The notes beneath the pieces were generated by a model. It ran no database searches, was not told the DNA's origin, and saw nothing but the letters and a program-made list of their open reading frames with translations. Of a stretch of 6,300 nucleotides of DNA, positions 1-6,300 are shown piece after piece (the first letter of the stretch is position 1; the number at the start of each line of letters is the position of its first letter). Source of the DNA: an uncultured Alistipes sp. (GTDB lineage: Bacteria > Bacteroidota > Bacteroidia > Bacteroidales > Rikenellaceae); contig CALGRZ010000046.1 of the NCBI GenBank assembly GCA_937880705.1, forward strand, positions 1 through 6,300, read 5' to 3'. Both the position numbers and the translations under genes were made by a program.

Positions 1-376
1 CCTCGGGCAGTGCACCCAGCAGCCTCTCGGCGAAGTCCGAGAGCATATTCTCGCATGTCGGCTGGTAGTCCGTCAGGACGATCTTCGAGAAGCGGTAGCC
101 GAGGTCGTTGGCCACCTGCTCGGCTGCGAGCGTATTGCGCATCATGAACGAGTGGTCGAGGCGGTCGACAATCTGCTCATTGACAATGCGTTTGAGCATG
201 CCGAAGTCCATCACCATGCCCAGCTTGGGCGAGTTGGGATCGCTCATGGGCTCACCCTTGATGGTGACAAAGAGACGGTACGAGTGTCCGTGTATTTCGC
301 GGCATAGGCCGTCGTAGCCCTCCAGCATGTGGGCGGCCTCGAAGGTGAACTCCTTGGTAAGTCGAATAACTGACAT
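1..376 (-). CDS. queD: 6-carboxy-5,6,7,8-tetrahydropterin synthase QueD (partial, C-terminus off the left edge)
   Basis: The first 125 residues are present; the gene continues past position 1. Family knowledge: QueD/PTPS enzymes convert 7,8-dihydroneopterin triphosphate to 6-carboxytetrahydropterin, the second step toward preQ0 and queuosine, in the cytoplasm. Seen here: the zinc-binding histidines in FEAAH (His16) and in IHGHSY (His29, His31), the catalytic Cys25 just before them (GLCREIHGHSY), the Asp74-His75 pair in RLDHSF, and a PTCEN motif at 106-110 that matches the family PTSEN. The expected catalytic Glu near the C-terminus lies outside the window. The start is the ATG at 376-374, which sets the family N-terminus (MSVIRLTKEFTFEAAH) with no extra residues. 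No Shine-Dalgarno is visible. No other que gene lies in the window; partners could be downstream, beyond the left edge. A sepiapterin-type PTPS is less likely because the Cys and HGH spacing fit QueD. Confidence 0.93.
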   Translation of the reverse strand, partial: MSVIRLTKEFTFEAAHMLEGYDGLCREIHGHSYRLFVTIKGEPMSDPNSPKLGMVMDFGMLKRIVNEQIVDRLDHSFMMRNTLAAEQVANDLGYRFSKIVLTDYQPTCENMLSDFAERLLGALPE

Positions 377-410
377 AGGCTTTATACTCTTATATATTAT
401 GAGTGTACGA

Positions 411-418
411 CAAAGATA
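411..418 (-). promoter_or_regulatory. Predicted -7 element of the queD promoter
   Basis: On the minus strand the bases read TATCTTTG, an exact match to the Bacteroidota -7 consensus TAnnTTTG. It sits 34 nt upstream of the queD ATG, giving a predicted leader of roughly 30 nt. No convincing -33 TTTG is seen at the usual 19-21 bp upstream, so the call rests on the -7 box and its placement. Confidence 0.55.
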
Positions 419-544
419 CTCTATTTATTTGAAATATCGGCCATGCCGAGGATAATATTTATACAATAGGGGTCGAATGGTTGTCGGCGTTTAGGCGGAG
501 GTCCGACATAGGCAGGCCTGCGAAAAGCACTCGCCATACAGCTT

Positions 545-590
545 AAAACCAAAAAGGGCTGTCGCAACACCGAGGTTGGACAGCCCAAAA
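545..590 (-). terminator. Intrinsic terminator of kbl
   Basis: An 8-bp perfect stem (GGGCTGTC at 556-563 with GACAGCCC at 579-586) continues as CAAC/GTTG (565-568 with 575-578) after one unpaired base, with a 6-nt loop. In the kbl direction the stem is followed by TTTTTGGTTTT (555 down to 545). It starts about 20 nt after the kbl stop codon. A run of A on the other side (587-590) is shorter, and no plus-strand gene ends here, so it serves kbl. Confidence 0.9.
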
Positions 591-605
591 TATCGAAAGG
601 GTCTG

Positions 606-1793
606 CTACTTCAGTACGCCGAGAGCCTTACCCACCTTCACGAATGCCTCAACACAGCGGTCGAGCTGCTCGGTGGTGTGGCCTGCCGACACCTGAACGC
701 GGATGCGTGCCTGGCCCTTGGGAACTACGGGGTAGTAGAAGCCGGTTACGAATACGCCCTCCTTCTGCAACTCGGCAGCGAAGTCCTGCGAGAGCTTTGC
801 ATCGTAGAGCATAACGGCGCAGATAGCCGACTGTGTAGGCTTGATGTCGAAGCCGGCAGCGATCATCTTGCTGCGGAAGTGCTCAACATTGGCTACGAGC
901 TGATCGTGCAGCTTGTCGCTCTCCTCCAACATCTTGAACATCTCGATGCTGGCACCCACAACGGCGGGGGGCAGTGAGTTAGAGAAGAGGTAGGGACGTG
1001 AACGCTGACGGAGCATGTCGATGATCTCCTTGCGACCGGTAGTGAAGCCACCTACGGCACCACCAAAGGCCTTACCCAGCGTACCGGTGAGGATATCCAC
1101 CTTGCCACGCAGGTCGAAGAGCTCTGTAATACCGCGACCGGTCTTACCCAGAACACCTGCCGAGTGGCACTCGTCAACCATTACCAGAGCATCATACTTC
1201 TCGGCCAGCTCGCAAATCTTGTCCAGCGGAGCGGCGTTGCCATCCATCGAGAATACACCGTCGGTGACGATGATGCGGAAACGCTGTGCCTGGGCCTGCT
1301 TGAGGCACTCCTCCAGCTCGGCCATGTCGGCATTGGCGTAGCGGTAACGCTGTGCCTTGCAAAGACGTACACCGTCGATGATCGAGGCGTGGTTCAGGGC
1401 ATCCGAGATGATAGCATCCTCGGCTGTGAACAGAGGCTCAAACACACCACCATTGGCGTCGAAGCAGGCTGCGTAGAGGATGGTATCCTCGGTGCCGAAG
1501 TAGTCGGCGATAGCCTTCTCGAGCTCCTTGTGCATATCCTGGCAACCGCAGATGAAGCGTACCGACGACATGCCGAAGCCACGCTCGTCCATAGCCTTCT
1601 TGGCGGCATCGATAAGACGCTGGTTGTCCGAGAGGCCAAGATAGTTGTTGGCGCAGAAGTTCAATACGGGGCGGTTAGCCACGTCGATCTCTGCTCGCTG
1701 GGGAGACTCGATGATACGCTCGGTCTTGTACAAGCCGGCAGCCTTAATCTCGGCCAGCTCGTTCTGCAAATGCTGCTGAAATTTTCCGTACAT
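606..1793 (-). CDS. kbl: Glycine C-acetyltransferase / 2-amino-3-ketobutyrate CoA ligase
   Basis: The product is 395 residues, close to the 398 of E. coli Kbl. It is a PLP-dependent alpha-oxoamine synthase that cleaves 2-amino-3-ketobutyrate with CoA to glycine and acetyl-CoA (reversible), the second step of threonine degradation after threonine dehydrogenase. Visible fold-type I landmarks: substrate-binding NNYLGLS (49-55), the PLP-stacking His135 in NHASIIDG, Asp207 and His210 in VDECHSAG (PLP pyridine contact), and Schiff-base Lys241 in TGTLGKAFGG. RSRPYLFSNSLPP (264-276) and the C-terminal RIRVQVSAGHT (363-373) are also typical. The frame is open upstream to 1931, but the family N-terminus is MYGKF with ATG at 1793-1791; the added 46 residues do not look like protein and run across the promoter. 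No threonine dehydrogenase gene adjoins it, unlike the E. coli kbl-tdh operon. The related synthases BioF and KAS are less likely given the close Kbl-type motifs. Confidence 0.96.
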   Translation of the reverse strand: MYGKFQQHLQNELAEIKAAGLYKTERIIESPQRAEIDVANRPVLNFCANNYLGLSDNQRLIDAAKKAMDERGFGMSSVRFICGCQDMHKELEKAIADYFGTEDTILYAACFDANGGVFEPLFTAEDAIISDALNHASIIDGVRLCKAQRYRYANADMAELEECLKQAQAQRFRIIVTDGVFSMDGNAAPLDKICELAEKYDALVMVDECHSAGVLGKTGRGITELFDLRGKVDILTGTLGKAFGGAVGGFTTGRKEIIDMLRQRSRPYLFSNSLPPAVVGASIEMFKMLEESDKLHDQLVANVEHFRSKMIAAGFDIKPTQSAICAVMLYDAKLSQDFAAELQKEGVFVTGFYYPVVPKGQARIRVQVSAGHTTEQLDRCVEAFVKVGKALGVLK

Positions 1794-1888
1794 TGTAGTT
1801 AGGTTTAAGTTATTGTATATTGTTAAAGCTATTGACAATCGGGTGTTGTGGTTCGATGGCTCACACCTGCCAGGGTCACAATCCAGTA

Positions 1889-1896
1889 CAAAGATA
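1889..1896 (-). promoter_or_regulatory. Predicted -7 element of the kbl promoter
   Basis: The minus strand reads TATCTTTG (TAnnTTTG consensus), 95 nt upstream of the kbl ATG. This implies a leader of about 90 nt, which contains no obvious riboswitch or strong hairpin. A possible -33 (TTTCG, 1923-1919) is about 22 bp away, slightly long for the class. It lies in the 165-bp gap behind the SUI1 gene, suggesting that kbl is transcribed independently of it. Confidence 0.55.
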
Positions 1897-1958
1897 GTAA
1901 AAAAATGCGAACTTATTTCGAAAGGCTGCATTTATTTTTGATGGGTCGGGGCTGTGGA

Positions 1959-2300
1959 CTATCCACCGGCCTTCTTGCAGCGGTAACCCGCCTTGAGGAG
2001 CAGCTCAAGGATGCGGTCGCGGTGGTCGCCCTGGATGATTATCTCGCCATCCTTGGCCGTGCCGCCCACGCCACAGCTCCTCTTAAGCTCCTTGGCCAGC
2101 GCAGCCAGGTCGTCCGACGAGCCTACGAAGCCCTTTACCACGGTGGCCACACGTCCGCCCTTGAGCCTGTCGAGCCACAGTCGCAGGTTCTGCTTCTCGG
2201 GTGCGAGGGTGTCGGCCTCGACCTCGGCCGAGCTCTTGTATTGGTAGTCGGGGTTGGTCGAGAAGACCACACCCAGACGCTCTTTCCAGTCACTTGCCAT
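1959..2300 (-). CDS. yciH: SUI1/eIF1-like translation factor (YciH family)
   Basis: A 113-residue protein with an N-terminal extension of about 38 residues followed by one SUI1 domain (about 38-108). Motifs seen: the basic loop LKGGRVATVVKGF (46-58), KRSCGVGGTAKDGEIIIQGD (73-92), which matches the family core GxGGTxKDGEIxIQGD, and the closing helix RDRILELLLKAGY. Family knowledge: bacterial YciH is related to eukaryotic eIF1, binds the small ribosomal subunit, and has been linked to initiation fidelity; its role in Bacteroidota is not well established. The start is the ATG at 2300-2298; the leader has no Shine-Dalgarno, as is usual here. It is divergent to the DUF4435 gene and precedes kbl on the same strand, but kbl has its own promoter. 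I see no clear terminator directly after its stop codon. Confidence 0.92.
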   Translation of the reverse strand: MASDWKERLGVVFSTNPDYQYKSSAEVEADTLAPEKQNLRLWLDRLKGGRVATVVKGFVGSSDDLAALAKELKRSCGVGGTAKDGEIIIQGDHRDRILELLLKAGYRCKKAGG

Positions 2301-2355
2301 AGGTGATATCTATAATATGTGGGGTTAAAATTACTCTAAAGTGCCTAATTGAATA

Positions 2356-2386
2356 CAAAGTTAAGAAATTTTTTGTATCTTTACAA
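2356..2386 (-). promoter_or_regulatory. Predicted promoter of the SUI1-family gene
   Basis: On the minus strand TAACTTTG (2363-2356) matches the -7 consensus TAnnTTTG exactly, and TTG (2386-2384) lies 20 bp upstream as a -33 core. The predicted transcript start is near 2350, giving a leader of about 50 nt. The -33 core falls just beyond the divergent plus-strand -7 box at 2376-2383, so the two promoters share DNA. Confidence 0.65.
2376..2383 (+). promoter_or_regulatory. Predicted -7 element of the DUF4435 gene
   Basis: TATCTTTA fits TAnnTTTG except for its last base. It ends only 5 bp before the GTG start codon at 2389, so the transcript would begin at or next to the start codon. A -33 partner is poor (nearest TTG at 2349-2351 is 24 bp away). 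It is interleaved with the minus-strand promoter of the SUI1 gene. Confidence 0.5.
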
Positions 2387-2388
2387 CT

Positions 2389-3468
2389 GTGAAACAGGAG
2401 AAGCGAAGAGAACGCCGTCGCCGTAAGCGCGACCTCACGGCCTACAACCCCGACCGTCTGCCCGAGATACTACCACCGGAGGACGATCGCAGGTTGGTGC
2501 GTGTATATGTCGAGGGCTATGAGGATGTGGCCTTCTGGCGCGGCATCTTCGACCACTTCCACAACCCATATCTGCGCTTCGAGATCTCGGTGCCCAACCG
2601 CGACGACCTGCCCAAGGGCAAGAAGGTGCTTATGTCGATGCTGGGCCACACCTCGGCCGATGAGGTGCTGCTGTGCGTGGACTCCGACTTCGACTATCTG
2701 TTCAACGGAGCTACGGAGCAGTCACGCGAGATACTCGAGGCCGACAATATGTTTCACACCTACACCTACGCCACGGAGAACTATCTGTGTTATGCCCCGT
2801 CGTTGCGCAACGTATGCGTGAAGGCGACCAAGAACGATACGCGTATCTTCGACTTCCAGCGATTCTTCGAGGAGTACTCGCGCATCATATACCCTCTGTT
2901 TTTGTGGTATGCCTACTCGGCACGCCTATCCTCGGAGCGAGTCTTTACGCTGGCCGAGTTCCGCGCCTCGGTGCGTCTGAACTATGTCGACATCCGTCTC
3001 AATGGCGAGAATACACTGGCCTGGTTGCAGCGTAATGTTGAGCGACGTGTCGAGGCTCTGGAGCGCGATAACCGAGATATGGTCGATGCCCTTGCAGCCT
3101 TTGGCGAGGAGCTGCGCGAGCGTGGTGTGGAGCCGCAGAATTGCTACCTCTTCATGCACGGACATACGCTGATGGACAACGTCACGATGCCCGTGCTCTC
3201 GGCCGTGTGCGATAAGCTGCGCCAGCTATCCATAGCCAAGATCAACCGCTCGAAGGTCGAGGGTGTGGCACTGAAGAACGAGTTGCAGAACTACACCAAC
3301 ACGCTGCGCTCGATACGCGATGTGCTGCTCGACAACGAGAACTACACCTCGTGCCCGCTATACAAGCGTTTGAGGGATGATATTCAGCACTACCTCGATC
3401 AGATGATTGCCCGTATCAAGGCCGAGCAGGAGCCACCGACGATGTTGCGCTGCAACTTTGAACCATAG
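2389..3468 (+). CDS. DUF4435 (Toprim-like) domain protein, function unknown
   Basis: The product is 359 residues. After a very basic N-terminal tail (residues 2-14, mostly K/R) comes a Toprim-like core. It has Glu42 in VYVEGYEDVAFW (39-50), then VLLCVDSDFDYL (93-104) with an Asp98-x-Asp100 pair and Asp102, and TYATENYLCY (126-135), the Glu-Asn-Tyr signature typical of DUF4435. A second region (about 155-235) is helical, and MHGHTLMDNV (256-265) resembles the conserved C-terminal block of the family. Family knowledge: DUF4435 proteins are related to the Toprim of OLD nucleases, and AriB of the PARIS anti-phage system is one. Here no AAA ATPase partner is encoded nearby, so defence is not supported; a housekeeping nucleic-acid enzyme is equally possible. 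The start is GTG 2389, the only standard start upstream of the first motif, because an in-frame TAA lies at 2362-2364. No signal peptide or membrane segment is seen. Codon use matches its neighbours. Confidence 0.85.
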   Translation: MKQEKRRERRRRKRDLTAYNPDRLPEILPPEDDRRLVRVYVEGYEDVAFWRGIFDHFHNPYLRFEISVPNRDDLPKGKKVLMSMLGHTSADEVLLCVDSDFDYLFNGATEQSREILEADNMFHTYTYATENYLCYAPSLRNVCVKATKNDTRIFDFQRFFEEYSRIIYPLFLWYAYSARLSSERVFTLAEFRASVRLNYVDIRLNGENTLAWLQRNVERRVEALERDNRDMVDALAAFGEELRERGVEPQNCYLFMHGHTLMDNVTMPVLSAVCDKLRQLSIAKINRSKVEGVALKNELQNYTNTLRSIRDVLLDNENYTSCPLYKRLRDDIQHYLDQMIARIKAEQEPPTMLRCNFEP

Positions 3469-3538
3469 ATGCTACGATAATATATTCAAAAATATTATTC
3501 AGAGTGTAGTATCTGTACCTCCAAAAGACATCATATCG

Positions 3539-3580
3539 GCACTTTTTGCACATTTTTTTAGTGTTTCGCCTCAAAAATGC
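3539..3580. repeat. Inverted repeat abutting the AraC-gene promoter
   Basis: GCACTTTTTG (3539-3548) and CAAAAATGC (3572-3580) can pair over 9 bp with a single unpaired C, around a T-rich spacer. The right arm ends at the -33 element of the araC-type gene. It could be an operator or a weak 3' structure behind the DUF4435 gene. No T-run follows it, which argues against an intrinsic terminator. Confidence 0.35.
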
Positions 3581-3610
3581 TTGGATATTCAAAATTCTTG
3601 CGTATATTTG
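3580..3610 (+). promoter_or_regulatory. Promoter of the AraC-family regulator gene
   Basis: CTTG (3580-3583) and TATATTTG (3603-3610) are separated by 19 bp, matching the Bacteroidota -33/-7 layout. The predicted start is near 3615, with a leader of about 47 nt. An inverted repeat, GTTGC (3612-3616) and GCAAC (3624-3628) with a 7-bp spacer, overlaps the predicted start and could serve as an operator or a small 5' hairpin. Confidence 0.75.
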
Positions 3611-3661
3611 TGTTGCAAACATAGCAACCCAATCGAAACATAAACCTTAAAACGAGATAGT

Positions 3662-4519
3662 ATGTCCAACCAGTGTCCAGCAACATGTCACTCTTATACC
3701 CTGGAGCCCGAAGCAGGCTTCACCTACGTTACCCTTAAGGCTGGTGAGAAATTAACCATCGAGCGTGGCGATCAGAACAACCTTATCTTCCTAATGTCCG
3801 GAAGCTTCGAGATTACCTCGGAGGAGCGTCGTGACTACGCTGTGCGCGAGGGACACTTCGTATTCTGCTTCCGTGCCTACAGCTACGACATTGTGGCCGT
3901 CACCGATGTTGAACTTATTCGTGCCCACTTCATCACCGCAGGTGCTGCATGCGACATGATCCCCTTCAACAGCATCGTGGGTAAGATCAAGAAGATTAAC
4001 TATAAGTTTACGCAGGTGGCCTTCAACGAGCCCCTCGAGTTGTTGCTGCGCTCGGTGAAGTACTACCAGCAGAACAATATCAAGTGTAACCATCTGCACG
4101 GAGCGAAGATTCAGGAGATGTTCGTCATCTTCAAGTTCTTCTACTCGCCGCAGATACAGCTCCGCACCTTCTACAACCTCTTCGACCGCAACCAGTCGTT
4201 TGCATCGCTCGTGCGCAACAACGCCCCGCGTGTCAAGACCGTTGAGGAGCTTGCCGATATTTGCGGTTTCAGCATCCAGCACTTCAACAACATGTTCAAG
4301 CAGGAGTTCAACGACACGCCCTACAGCTGGATGCAGAAGCAGCGCATCGTGGAGATAGAACGACTGCTCACCGAGACCAACGTACCTCTGAAGAGCATCA
4401 TCAAGATGTACAGCTTCACCAACCATGGTCACTTCGCCCTCTTCTGCCGCAAGTATCTGAAGAAGACTCCTCTGAAGATCCGCAAGGAGGCAAGGGCCAA
4501 GAAGGAGGCTACGGCATAG
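3662..4519 (+). CDS. AraC-family transcriptional regulator
   Basis: The product is 285 residues. Residues about 10-100 resemble the cupin-like sensing domain of AraC regulators, with beta-rich stretches such as LIFLMSGSFEI and a REGHFVFC turn. Residues about 105-190 are mostly helical linker. The DNA-binding domain is at 191-272. Its first helix-turn-helix is in TVEELADICGFSIQHFNNMFKQ, and the second is in VPLKSIIKMYSFTNHGHFALFCRKY, where the family usually has F.D..YFsR.FKK. The protein ends in a lysine-rich tail. The effector cannot be told from the sequence. The start is ATG 3662, with an A-rich leader and no Shine-Dalgarno. It has its own promoter and points toward the EF-G-like gene 523 bp downstream, so regulation of that gene is possible but unproven. 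No carbohydrate-use genes lie beside it, unlike many Bacteroidota AraC-type regulators. Confidence 0.88.
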   Translation: MSNQCPATCHSYTLEPEAGFTYVTLKAGEKLTIERGDQNNLIFLMSGSFEITSEERRDYAVREGHFVFCFRAYSYDIVAVTDVELIRAHFITAGAACDMIPFNSIVGKIKKINYKFTQVAFNEPLELLLRSVKYYQQNNIKCNHLHGAKIQEMFVIFKFFYSPQIQLRTFYNLFDRNQSFASLVRNNAPRVKTVEELADICGFSIQHFNNMFKQEFNDTPYSWMQKQRIVEIERLLTETNVPLKSIIKMYSFTNHGHFALFCRKYLKKTPLKIRKEARAKKEATA

Positions 4520-4530
4520 AGTTAGACCTA

Positions 4531-4638
4531 AACGGGGCAATACAACGGGGCAATACAACGGGGCAATACAACGGGGCAGTACAACGGGGCCATGTAGCGG
4601 TGTGATGCAACGGTGTGATGCAACGTGGTAATGCAACG
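4531..4638. repeat. 13-bp tandem repeat array, about 8.3 copies
   Basis: The array starts 12 bp after the AraC-gene stop codon. The unit is AACGGGGCAATAC. Copies at 4531, 4544 and 4557 are identical, and the one at 4570 differs by one base (A to G). The copy at 4583 is AACGGGGCCATGT. Copies at 4596 and 4609 form a diverged pair (A[G/A]CGGTGTGATGC), the one at 4622 is AACGTGGTAATGC, and AACG at 4635-4638 ends the array. The period is exactly 13 throughout, so it is a minisatellite that grew from the left or decays to the right. Since 13 is not a multiple of 3 and no gene spans it, it is not protein-coding. Confidence 0.95.
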
Positions 4639-4914: not shown

Positions 4915-4945
4915 TTTGCAGTTTGAAAAAAAGTATCTAACTTTA
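4915..4945 (+). promoter_or_regulatory. Promoter of the EF-G-like gene
   Basis: TTTG (4915-4918) and TAACTTTA (4938-4945) are separated by 19 bp. This matches the Bacteroidota TTTG-N19-TAnnTTTG layout except for the final base. The predicted start is near 4950, leaving a leader of about 92 nt. Confidence 0.7.
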
Positions 4946-5042: not shown

Positions 5043-6300
5043 ATGAAAAACTATTCAGCAAAAGAGATTAAGAACATCGTTCTTATTGGTGCGCCCGGCG
5101 CCGGAAAAACTACCCTTGCAGAGGCAATGGCTTTCGAGGGTAAGGTTATTGATCGCAGGGGTAGTATCGAGGCCAACAACACGCTCTCGGATAATACCGA
5201 CATTGAGCACGAATATAAGCGTTCGATATATTCGACAACCCTCTTTACCGAGTTTATGGACCGTAAGCTCAACATCATCGACTGCCCCGGTTCGGACGAC
5301 TTCTGTGGTTCGCTCTTCTCGGCTTTCAAGGTGGGCGATGTTGGCGTTATGGTTCTTAATGCTCAGAATGGCTGGGAGGTAGGCTCAGAGCTTCAGTCTC
5401 GCTATGCTCGTCTCTTGAACAAGCCCCTTATCGGCGTTGTTAACCAGCTCGACGGCGACAAGGCTAACTTCGATGCTACCGTTGAGGGTATTCGTGCCAA
5501 CTCATCGGTTAAGCCCGTTATCGTGCAGTACCCCATCAACCAGGGTGCAGGTTTCGACTCGTTCATCGATGTATTGATGATGAAGATGTATAAGTTCGTC
5601 GATGAGAATGGTAAGCGCGAGGAGCACCCCATTCCTGAGAACGAGTTGGAGCGTGCCAATGCTCTTAATCAGGAGCTTGCTGAGGCTGCTGCCGTTTATG
5701 ATGACGCACTTATGGAGCTCTACTTCGAGAAGGGTTCACTCACTCAGGACGACATCCGTGCAGGTTTGAAGCTCGGCGTATCGAAGCGTGATGTAATGCC
5801 TATCTTCTGTGCATCGGGCAAGCGCGACATCGGTACTAAGCGTCTTATGGAGTTTATCATCAATGTAGCTCCCGGCCCATTGAAGGCGCCTGCATTCCTC
5901 TCTACCGAGGGTGAGGAGCTCGTTGCAAATGCCGAGGAGCCTACCGTAGTATTCGTATTCAAGAGCCAGATTGAGCAGCATATCGGCGAGATCACCTACT
6001 TCCGCGTTATTCGTGGTAAGGTCACCGAGGGTATGGAGCTTGTAAACTCACGCACTGGCAATAAGGAGAAGCTCTCGCAGCTCTTCGCCGTTGCTGGTAA
6101 GAACCGTGTTAAGGTTTCAGAGCTTTCGGCAGGTGATATCGGTTGCACCGTGAAGCTTAAGGGCACTCGCACCAACGACACCCTTGCAGCTCCCTCTGCA
6201 CCTGTTACCGTTGAGCCTATCGTATTCCCTGAGCCTCGCTACCGCGCAGCTATCAAGGCTAAGGAGCAGAACGATGAGGAGAAGTTGGGCAAGTTGCTCA
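5043..6300 (+). CDS. fusA2: Elongation factor G paralogue, EF-G2 type (partial, runs off the right edge)
   Basis: The first 419 residues are present, covering the G domain and domain II; domains III-V, including the decoding-site domain IV, lie beyond the window. G1 is GAPGAGKT (16-23), where standard EF-G has AHIDAGKT. The switch I segment (about 55-68, EHEYKRSIYSTTLF) lacks the canonical RGITI. G3 is DCPGS (80-84), where standard EF-G has DTPGH, so the GTPase-critical His is Ser84. G4 is NQLD (134-137) instead of NKMD. CASGKRDIG (256-264) is the G5 region. Domain II begins at about 301 (VVFVFKSQIEQHIGEITYF). Family knowledge: Bacteroides EF-G2 supports ribosomal translocation without GTP hydrolysis and is induced on carbon starvation. 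Here this is inferred from motifs. The start is ATG 5043, where the family sequence begins. Codons ending in T (GGT, CGT, GTT) are commoner than in the DUF4435 gene, which fits high expression. TetM-type protection proteins keep DTPGH and are excluded. Confidence 0.9.
   Translation, partial: MKNYSAKEIKNIVLIGAPGAGKTTLAEAMAFEGKVIDRRGSIEANNTLSDNTDIEHEYKRSIYSTTLFTEFMDRKLNIIDCPGSDDFCGSLFSAFKVGDVGVMVLNAQNGWEVGSELQSRYARLLNKPLIGVVNQLDGDKANFDATVEGIRANSSVKPVIVQYPINQGAGFDSFIDVLMMKMYKFVDENGKREEHPIPENELERANALNQELAEAAAVYDDALMELYFEKGSLTQDDIRAGLKLGVSKRDVMPIFCASGKRDIGTKRLMEFIINVAPGPLKAPAFLSTEGEELVANAEEPTVVFVFKSQIEQHIGEITYFRVIRGKVTEGMELVNSRTGNKEKLSQLFAVAGKNRVKVSELSAGDIGCTVKLKGTRTNDTLAAPSAPVTVEPIVFPEPRYRAAIKAKEQNDEEKLGKLL

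What the first reader, a model, noticed from the sequence alone, without database searches (positions are those of the whole stretch)
5043..6300. EF-G paralogue lacking the catalytic His of G3 and the Lys of G4
The sequence shows DCPGS (residues 80-84) in place of DTPGH and NQLD (134-137) in place of NKMD, with an altered switch I. In translational GTPases the His positions the attacking water, so Ser84 predicts little or no GTP hydrolysis, while the intact GKT P-loop predicts that nucleotide still binds. This is the pattern expected for Bacteroides EF-G2, reported to translocate without hydrolysis. The G4 change may also alter guanine specificity, which would be worth testing separately.
Basis: partly seen in the sequence, partly recalled or inferred. 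Interest (0 to 1): 0.7.

Follow-up and report, generated by a model that had tools for sequence, protein, structure and literature searches.

The report
Alistipes copy of Bacteroides elongation factor EF-G2
This gut-bacterium gene encodes a spare version of the protein that moves the ribosome along its message, very probably without burning the usual fuel (GTP); it is the Alistipes counterpart of a factor already studied in Bacteroides, and the missing catalytic residue is also absent from every close relative examined here.

Summary
Window 5043-6299 encodes the first 419 of about 717 residues of an EF-G paralogue with an intact GKT P-loop, DCPGS at 80-84, NQLD at 134-137 and YKRSIYS where canonical EF-G has RGITIT. 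It is the Alistipes orthologue of Bacteroides EF-G2: NCBIfam NF058620 matches, and the chain deposited as ribosome-bound B. thetaiotaomicron EF-G2 (8dmf) carries the same DCPGS and NQLD. A separate canonical fusA with DTPGH exists in related genomes.

Two corrections. The missing His is not special to this gene: it is absent from all 134 non-Alistipes Bacteroidota EF-G2-type proteins and all 10 EFG II proteins from other phyla that I read, including T. thermophilus EF-G-2, reported to hydrolyse GTP. Ser84 alone therefore does not prove loss of hydrolysis. On the tree the His changed once, at the EFG I/EFG II split; the domain IV insert that I recall being blamed for the lost GTPase came later, inside Bacteroidota. 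The G4 change spares the guanine-specifying Asp137.

Best reading: a GTP-binding, hydrolysis-independent translocation factor like Bacteroides EF-G2. It is a new member of a known kind; the ordering of the changes makes the cause of the GTPase loss testable.

The parts
5043..6299 (+). fusA2 (EF-G2), residues 1-419 of about 717; cut by the window end
   Evidence: NF058620, 618 bits over profile 1-419 of 717; 120 of 120 listed relatives are 717 aa
5088..5111 (+). G1/P-loop GAPGAGKT, with Gly19 in place of the Asp of canonical HIDAGKT
   Evidence: G21, K22, T23 invariant in 227 of 227 family rows; Asp19 in 17 of 17 canonical rows
5214..5234 (+). Switch I / G2, YKRSIYS in place of RGITIT; Ser61 stands where the Mg-binding Thr is
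   Evidence: position 61 is S in 223 and T in 4 of 227 family rows; T in 14 of 14 canonical rows
5280..5294 (+). G3 DCPGS: Ser84 in place of the catalytic His
5442..5453 (+). G4 NQLD: Gln135 in place of Lys, Asp137 kept
4915..4945 (+). Promoter-like element upstream: TTTG (4915-4918), 19 bases, TAACTTTA (4938-4945)
   Evidence: In an alignment of the window with 79 upstream regions, six of the eight bases 4938-4945 (T, A, T, T, T, A) agree in 79 or 80 of 80 rows; the TTTG part is looser, 33 to 71 of 80 per base. Likeness to the Bacteroidota consensus is recalled; activity not tested

Best explanation
The gene is the Alistipes orthologue of Bacteroides EF-G2. The protein keeps the residues that hold GTP-Mg (GKT, Ser61, Asp80, Asn134, Asp137) and, in full-length relatives, the domain IV tip that enters the decoding site, but lacks the elements by which the ribosome triggers GTP cleavage: the G3 His, the P-loop Asp and the switch I Ile. 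It most likely binds the ribosome with GTP, promotes tRNA-mRNA translocation through its binding energy and shape, and leaves without ribosome-triggered hydrolysis; the domain IV hairpin (residues about 511-536 of the full protein, outside this window) is the likely aid to release. Shown here: identity, motifs, conservation, a separate canonical fusA in relatives, order of changes on a rooted tree. Inferred: GTP binding, translocation, absence of hydrolysis, role of the hairpin in this species.
For: Full-length relative P0002 scores 1220 bits to NF058620, cut-off 1000, and its model matches 8dmf, titled ribosome-bound B. thetaiotaomicron EF-G2, at TM 0.93 and 54% identity. That chain has DCPGS and NQLD. 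EF-G2 of B. thetaiotaomicron is described as enabling GTP-independent translation (PMC10294740 passage) and cited as an EF-G paralogue that translocates without GTP hydrolysis (PMC12775393 passage). 218 of 238 family rows lack all three triggering elements and none has the His; 17 of 17 canonical rows have all three. Domain IV tip His593 is kept in 220 of 220 family rows that have a residue there. Ser for this His in IF2 leaves GTP binding near normal (Kd about twofold up) and abolishes GTPase with and without ribosomes (PMC7037019). Purifying selection, dN/dS about 0.06.
Against: No activity was measured on any Alistipes protein. E. coli EF-G H91A keeps one seventh of its ribosome-stimulated rate, and intrinsic GTPase is unaffected by H91 changes. 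T. thermophilus EF-G-2, which also lacks the His and the P-loop Asp, is reported to hydrolyse GTP and to be active in poly(Phe) synthesis. From the abstract as I recall it, the Bacteroides study (Han 2023, not held) traces the loss of GTPase to a 26-residue region rather than to the His. No site for the Bacteroides regulator Cur was found upstream, so the starvation control may differ.
Confidence: 0.82

Rival explanations
1. It still hydrolyses GTP, slowly or only intrinsically, as T. thermophilus EF-G-2 is reported to do; the His loss mainly slows phosphate release and turnover.
For: E. coli H91A: 28/s hydrolysis but 0.32/s Pi release; 1WDT G3 is DAPGY, yet T. thermophilus EF-G-2 hydrolyses GTP; IF2 H301Y keeps ribosome-independent GTPase.
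Against: The window has Ser, not Tyr; IF2 H301S loses ribosome-independent GTPase too; the chain with the same DCPGS and NQLD belongs to a factor reported as GTP-independent.
Confidence: 0.12
2. It is not a translocase but a specialised recycling, hibernation or ribosome-protection factor.
For: Some EF-G paralogues split translocation and recycling (PMC3150367 introduction passage and reference title); the PDB chain carries the molecule name TetQ.
Against: Tet(Q) model score is 99.6 bits against a cut-off of 1425 for P0002; the 8dmf entry title names it EF-G2; the domain IV tip His and the QSGGxG loop are conserved.
Confidence: 0.05
3. A decaying duplicate of fusA without function.
For: Catalytic residues are missing.
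Against: dN/dS about 0.06; a match over the family cut-off in 55 of 61 genomes sampled from the taxonomic family of A. montrealensis.
Confidence: 0.01

Closest known systems
Bacteroides thetaiotaomicron EF-G2 (fusA2, BT2167; PDB 8dmf, 7uvp)
   Same: DCPGS, NQLD, GKT P-loop, Ser in G2, domain IV insert of the same length class in full-length relatives, separate canonical fusA.
   Different: 54% identity over the model of a relative; switch I YKRSI instead of YGYSV; no Cur-like site found upstream; activity untested in Alistipes.
Thermus thermophilus EF-G-2 (1WDT, EFG II)
   Same: No G3 His (DAPGY), no P-loop Asp, EFG II type.
   Different: Tyr in place of Ser, TKLD in G4, reported to hydrolyse GTP. 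Its own domain IV loop was not in the 280-residue query; no insert was found in 9 other-phyla EFG II proteins.
Mycobacterium smegmatis EFG2
   Same: Reported to bind guanine nucleotides but to lack ribosome-dependent GTPase (PMC3150367 passage).
   Different: Its sequence was not read here, so its G3 letters are unknown to me.
Canonical EF-G (fusA, EFG I) of Alistipes
   Same: Same fold class; second EF-G in the same genomes.
   Different: DTPGH, HIDAGKT and NKMD kept; about 32% identity to EF-G2.

Membership tests
Bacteroides EF-G2 (NCBIfam NF058620) | Score above the curated cut-off of 1000 bits | tested here: inconclusive
   Window fragment 618 bits because it is cut at 419 of 717 positions; its 99% identical full-length relative P0002 1220 bits
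Bacteroides EF-G2 (NCBIfam NF058620) | Same G3 and G4 letters as the deposited B. thetaiotaomicron EF-G2 chain | tested here: met
   DCPGS and NQLD in both
Bacteroides EF-G2 (NCBIfam NF058620) | Insert in domain IV | tested here: inconclusive
   Outside the window; loop of 37-38 residues in 74 of the 80 closest loci, the other 6 being cut by the contig end within or before it
Bacteroides EF-G2 (NCBIfam NF058620) | Translocation without GTPase activity | not testable with these tools
   Needs purified protein
Bacteroides EF-G2 (NCBIfam NF058620) | Cur (BT4338) site in the promoter | tested here: not met
   Best match has 7 mismatches of 14 fixed bases in the 200 bases upstream; 80 upstream regions look like shuffles. 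A trait of regulation in Bacteroides, not of the protein family
EFG II subfamily (Margus 2011, PMC3150367) | Gly16 in the P-loop and Ser in G2 (xxxSx) | tested here: met
   Gly16 and Ser61; criteria read
EFG II subfamily (Margus 2011, PMC3150367) | G4 NKxD | tested here: not met
   NQLD; but the B. thetaiotaomicron chain has it too, and the paper itself lists a Bacteroidetes EFG II sub-group with G2 YGYSV, the motif of that chain, so I take it that the Lys does not define the subfamily
EFG II subfamily (Margus 2011, PMC3150367) | Falls outside canonical EF-G in a tree, with other EFG II proteins | tested here: met
   Canonical EF-G is one side of a fully supported branch in both trees; P0002 (99% identical) stands for the window gene
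Canonical EF-G (EFG I) | G3 DTPGH with the catalytic His | tested here: not met
   DCPGS; His in 17 of 17 canonical rows
Tet(Q) ribosomal protection protein | Score above the NCBIfam cut-off of 1425 bits | tested here: not met
   99.6 bits for P0002

The most novel reading that the evidence does not exclude
Loss of the ribosome-triggered hydrolysis machinery (G3 His, mostly also P-loop Asp and switch I Ile) is the founding trait of the whole EFG II subfamily across bacterial phyla, so that translocation not driven by ribosome-triggered GTP cleavage is old and widespread rather than a Bacteroides invention. The letter that replaced His (Tyr against Ser, Thr or Leu) sets how much intrinsic GTPase remains, and the Bacteroidota domain IV insert, gained later in two steps, is a release device rather than the origin of the GTPase loss.
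Probability: 0.35. Interest if true: 0.7.

Novelty: new member of a known kind. Interest (0 to 1): 0.4.

Why it matters
The gene itself extends a known factor to Alistipes. The comparison separates two candidate causes of the missing GTPase: on the tree the His was lost before the domain IV insert appeared. If His-less, insert-free EFG II proteins also fail in ribosome-stimulated hydrolysis but translocate, then hydrolysis-free translocation is a general bacterial option, which bears on the old question of what GTP hydrolysis by EF-G is for.

Tried and rejected
Window genome: none is held, so canonical fusA was sought in genomes of 12 of the 80 closest loci instead.

Cur site: not found. Conserved neighbours as a clue to function: the AraC-type gene, DUF4435 gene and SUI1 gene of the window matched 0 of 80 loci near EF-G2; kbl 2 of 80, PTPS 1 of 80 (many loci end at contig edges). 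Rfam: no family at gathering threshold in the window.

Link between a small residue at G3 and the insert: only 5 independent pairs, which cannot reach significance; left open. The same holds for G4 Lys and the insert, 4 pairs on supported branches (108 non-canonical rows of the second tree).

An EF-G-like stretch inside a 3304-aa frame (G064) was followed up and is an artefact of a masked run of N.

Papers: Han 2023 (EMBO J, PMC9841332) is not held; its 26-residue claim is recalled from the abstract, and a search for it gave nothing of use. Searches for a printed statement that EFG II lacks the G3 His were made; none of the listed titles and abstract openings states it. PMC3150367 has no occurrence of histidine, His84 or His87 in its main text. 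I do not claim that it is unpublished.

Limits: the 227 family rows include 12 repeats (L088-L099) of genes already in L001-L080; 6 of the 80 closest loci are cut by the contig end before or within the domain IV loop. The 134 non-Alistipes rows are those I fetched, not all relatives: loci (29 of 30; L116 is A. montrealensis and was dropped; 60; 30; 14 of 20; the other 6 are canonical EF-G by motif, and those put in the trees group with it) and L263. Other-phyla proteins: 13 of 50 listed hits (1018 records matched) were fetched, of which 9 are EFG II, 3 canonical and 1 Bacteroidota; in one of the 9, L256, switch I is short or badly aligned and the P-loop reads GKS. L262 was left out of the second tree (long branch); 1WDT is in neither tree because only 280 residues were at hand. 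Trees are quick searches with SH-aLRT support only, both flag some long branches, and the order of events depends on rooting them on canonical EF-G.

Full report
WHAT IS THERE. The ORF 5043-6299 (+) starts with ATG and runs off the window. Its 419 residues hold a P-loop GAPGAGKT, switch I YKRSIYS, G3 DCPGS (80-84) and G4 NQLD (134-137). Full-length relatives at 94-99% identity are 717 aa in 120 of the 120 rows listed (7975 proteins passed the threshold), with the EF-G domains in Pfam. The closest genome loci are Alistipes sp. assemblies, mostly from ruminant gut, best 98% in protein (L001) and 95.3% in DNA. The window's own genome is not held, so its species is inferred.

REAL AND SELECTED. 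DCPGS is found in 80 of the 80 loci kept (best of 403). The Ser84 codon drifts among four Ser codons and Gln135 between two Gln codons in 78 of 78 loci long enough; median dN/dS is 0.06 over 67 of them. The gene is kept by selection.

IDENTITY. NCBIfam NF058620 (EFG2_Bacteroid) is the best family (618 bits over the 419 residues; 1220 bits for the full-length relative against a cut-off of 1000). In the PDB the best sequence match is the chain of 7uvp and 8dmf, named TetQ in the molecule field; the title of 8dmf is Cryo-EM structure of the ribosome-bound Bacteroides thetaiotaomicron EF-G2. That chain has DCPGS and NQLD. In B. thetaiotaomicron fusA2 is induced 238-fold on carbon limitation and needed for gut colonization (PMC6989115, passages), is described as enabling GTP-independent translation (PMC10294740, passages), and is cited as an EF-G paralogue that translocates without GTP hydrolysis (PMC12775393, passages). 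The primary paper, Han 2023, is not held; I recall from its abstract that a 26-residue region unique to EF-G2 was found essential for release from the ribosome and responsible for the missing GTPase. In the alignment of P0002 to T. thermophilus EF-G the stretch left unmatched in domain IV is residues 512-536, which fits that region in length.

A SEPARATE CANONICAL fusA. Of 12 genomes of closest loci searched (12 of 80), 7 have a match of 1019-1031 bits to TIGR00484, cut-off 659.4; all 7 read DTPGH. In the five without it, which include the genome of the closest locus, rpsG is absent (three) or cut at a contig end (two), against intact rpsG in the 3 of 7 fusA-bearing genomes tested; the absence is therefore most likely an assembly gap. 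In 61 genomes of the taxonomic family of A. montrealensis, 55 have EF-G2 above the cut-off; 52 of these 55 also have a second, weaker match of 290-333 bits, mostly broken near position 510 as canonical EF-G is, and 3 do not; 4 genomes have only the second kind (the second matches were not read residue by residue).

HOW UNUSUAL IS THE MISSING HIS. I aligned 227 EF-G2-type rows (12 are repeats of the same genes) with 14 canonical EF-Gs. Position 84 is never His in the family (S 100, Y 72, L 21, T 21, F 10, A 2, P 1) and always His in the 14. Among the 134 non-Alistipes rows it is Y 72, L 21, T 21, F 10, S 7, A 2, P 1. Nine EFG II proteins from Fusobacteriota, Clostridia, alpha-, beta- and gammaproteobacteria and Actinomycetota, and T. 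thermophilus EF-G-2 (1WDT, DAPGY), lack it too: Y 7, L 1, G 1, S 1. Two further conserved elements mostly go with it: the P-loop Asp and the switch I Ile. 218 of 238 rows lack all three, 14 keep only the Ile, 5 only the Asp, 1 both, none the His; 17 of 17 canonical rows keep all three. That the Asp and Ile serve ribosome-triggered hydrolysis in translational GTPases is recalled knowledge.

ORDER OF EVENTS. The domain IV stretch measured (505-541 of P0002) is 8-21 residues long in the 14 canonical EF-Gs (8-10 in 11 of them) and 8 in 40 of 133 Bacteroidota EFG II rows, 28-30 in 88 rows and 37 in 5 rows (classes); in the 80 closest loci it is 37-38 in 74 and cut by the contig end in 6. None of the 9 other-phyla proteins has the insert. 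In a tree of 119 rows, and again in a tree of 118 rows without the insert, G3, P-loop Asp and G4 columns, the His changes once, the insert classes need two changes, and five groups need only four, the minimum. Position 135 changes between Lys/Arg and other residues seven times. So, with the root on canonical EF-G, His loss came first, then a gain of about 20 residues within Bacteroidota, then about 9 more in the Bacteroides/Alistipes lineage, where Ser84 (Ala in one row, L113) and Gln135 are found. The AlphaFold2 model of the full-length relative (53 sequences, mean pLDDT 90) shows strands at 517-520, 523-526 and 531-536 in the insert.

WHAT THE LETTER MEANS. Against: E. coli EF-G H91A hydrolyses at 28/s (wild type 202/s) on the ribosome, intrinsic hydrolysis is unaffected, and Pi release falls to 0.32/s from 28/s; the same paper notes an earlier report of H91A as fully inactive (PMC4532990, passages). 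Also against: T. thermophilus EF-G-2, without the His, is reported to hydrolyse GTP, with intrinsic activity higher than EF-G-1, and to be active in poly(Phe) synthesis (PMC3150367, passages). For: in IF2 the same His changed to Ser, Leu, Tyr or Arg keeps GTP binding within about 2.5-fold and abolishes ribosome-dependent GTPase; His to Tyr keeps ribosome-independent GTPase, Ser and Leu do not; none of the mutants dissociated on 70S formation, and the authors see no direct link between the two defects (PMC7037019, abstract and passages). For: M. [quoted passage not shown] sequence not read). A consistent reading is that Tyr-type EFG II proteins keep intrinsic GTPase, while Ser-type ones such as this keep none. 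This is inference.

G4. Lys to Gln removes a contact to the nucleotide, but Asp137 is kept in 225 of 227 rows. Guanine specificity rests on that Asp (established knowledge), so weaker binding is likelier than altered specificity.

REGULATION AND NEIGHBOURS. A promoter-like element at 4915-4945 has a near-invariant core TA..TTTA at 4938-4945 across the window and 79 upstream regions; no Cur-like site stands out. Neighbouring genes are not conserved in the 80 loci.

VERDICT. A new Alistipes member of the known Bacteroides EF-G2 kind, itself a branch of EFG II.

Noticed in passing
window 4531-4590 and 4598-4638: Two short tandem arrays of 13-base units (AACGGGGCAATAC x4.6 and CGGTGTGATGCAA x3.2) right after the AraC-type gene, between it and fusA2.
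   Followed up: no
window 1-4519: Neighbours by Pfam: PTPS (2-376 -), aminotransferase class I/II, probably 2-amino-3-ketobutyrate CoA ligase (606-1931 -; name and a probably too early start are my judgement), SUI1 (1959-2300 -), DUF4435 (2389-3468 +), AraC-type regulator (3662-4519 +).
   Followed up: partly
PDB 7uvp and 8dmf: The chain of the ribosome-bound Bacteroides EF-G2 entry bears the molecule name Tetracycline resistance protein TetQ; its Alistipes relative P0002 scores far below the Tet(Q) cut-off.
   Followed up: yes
L205, L211, L251, L260: Four of four EFG II proteins without insert and without the G3 His that were scanned score 682-698 bits to TIGR00484 EF-G, above its equivalog cut-off of 659.4, so this model does not tell them from canonical EF-G.
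   Followed up: partly
L270 (G200) and L271 (G306): EFG II-type genes that look broken near the N-terminus in two Bacteroidota genomes: in L270 the open frame begins about residue 70, in L271 the first part lies in another frame.
   Followed up: no
G007:C2:334781-336658: A third EF-G-like frame of 658 aa in a related genome, of about the length of ribosomal protection proteins; not classified.
   Followed up: no
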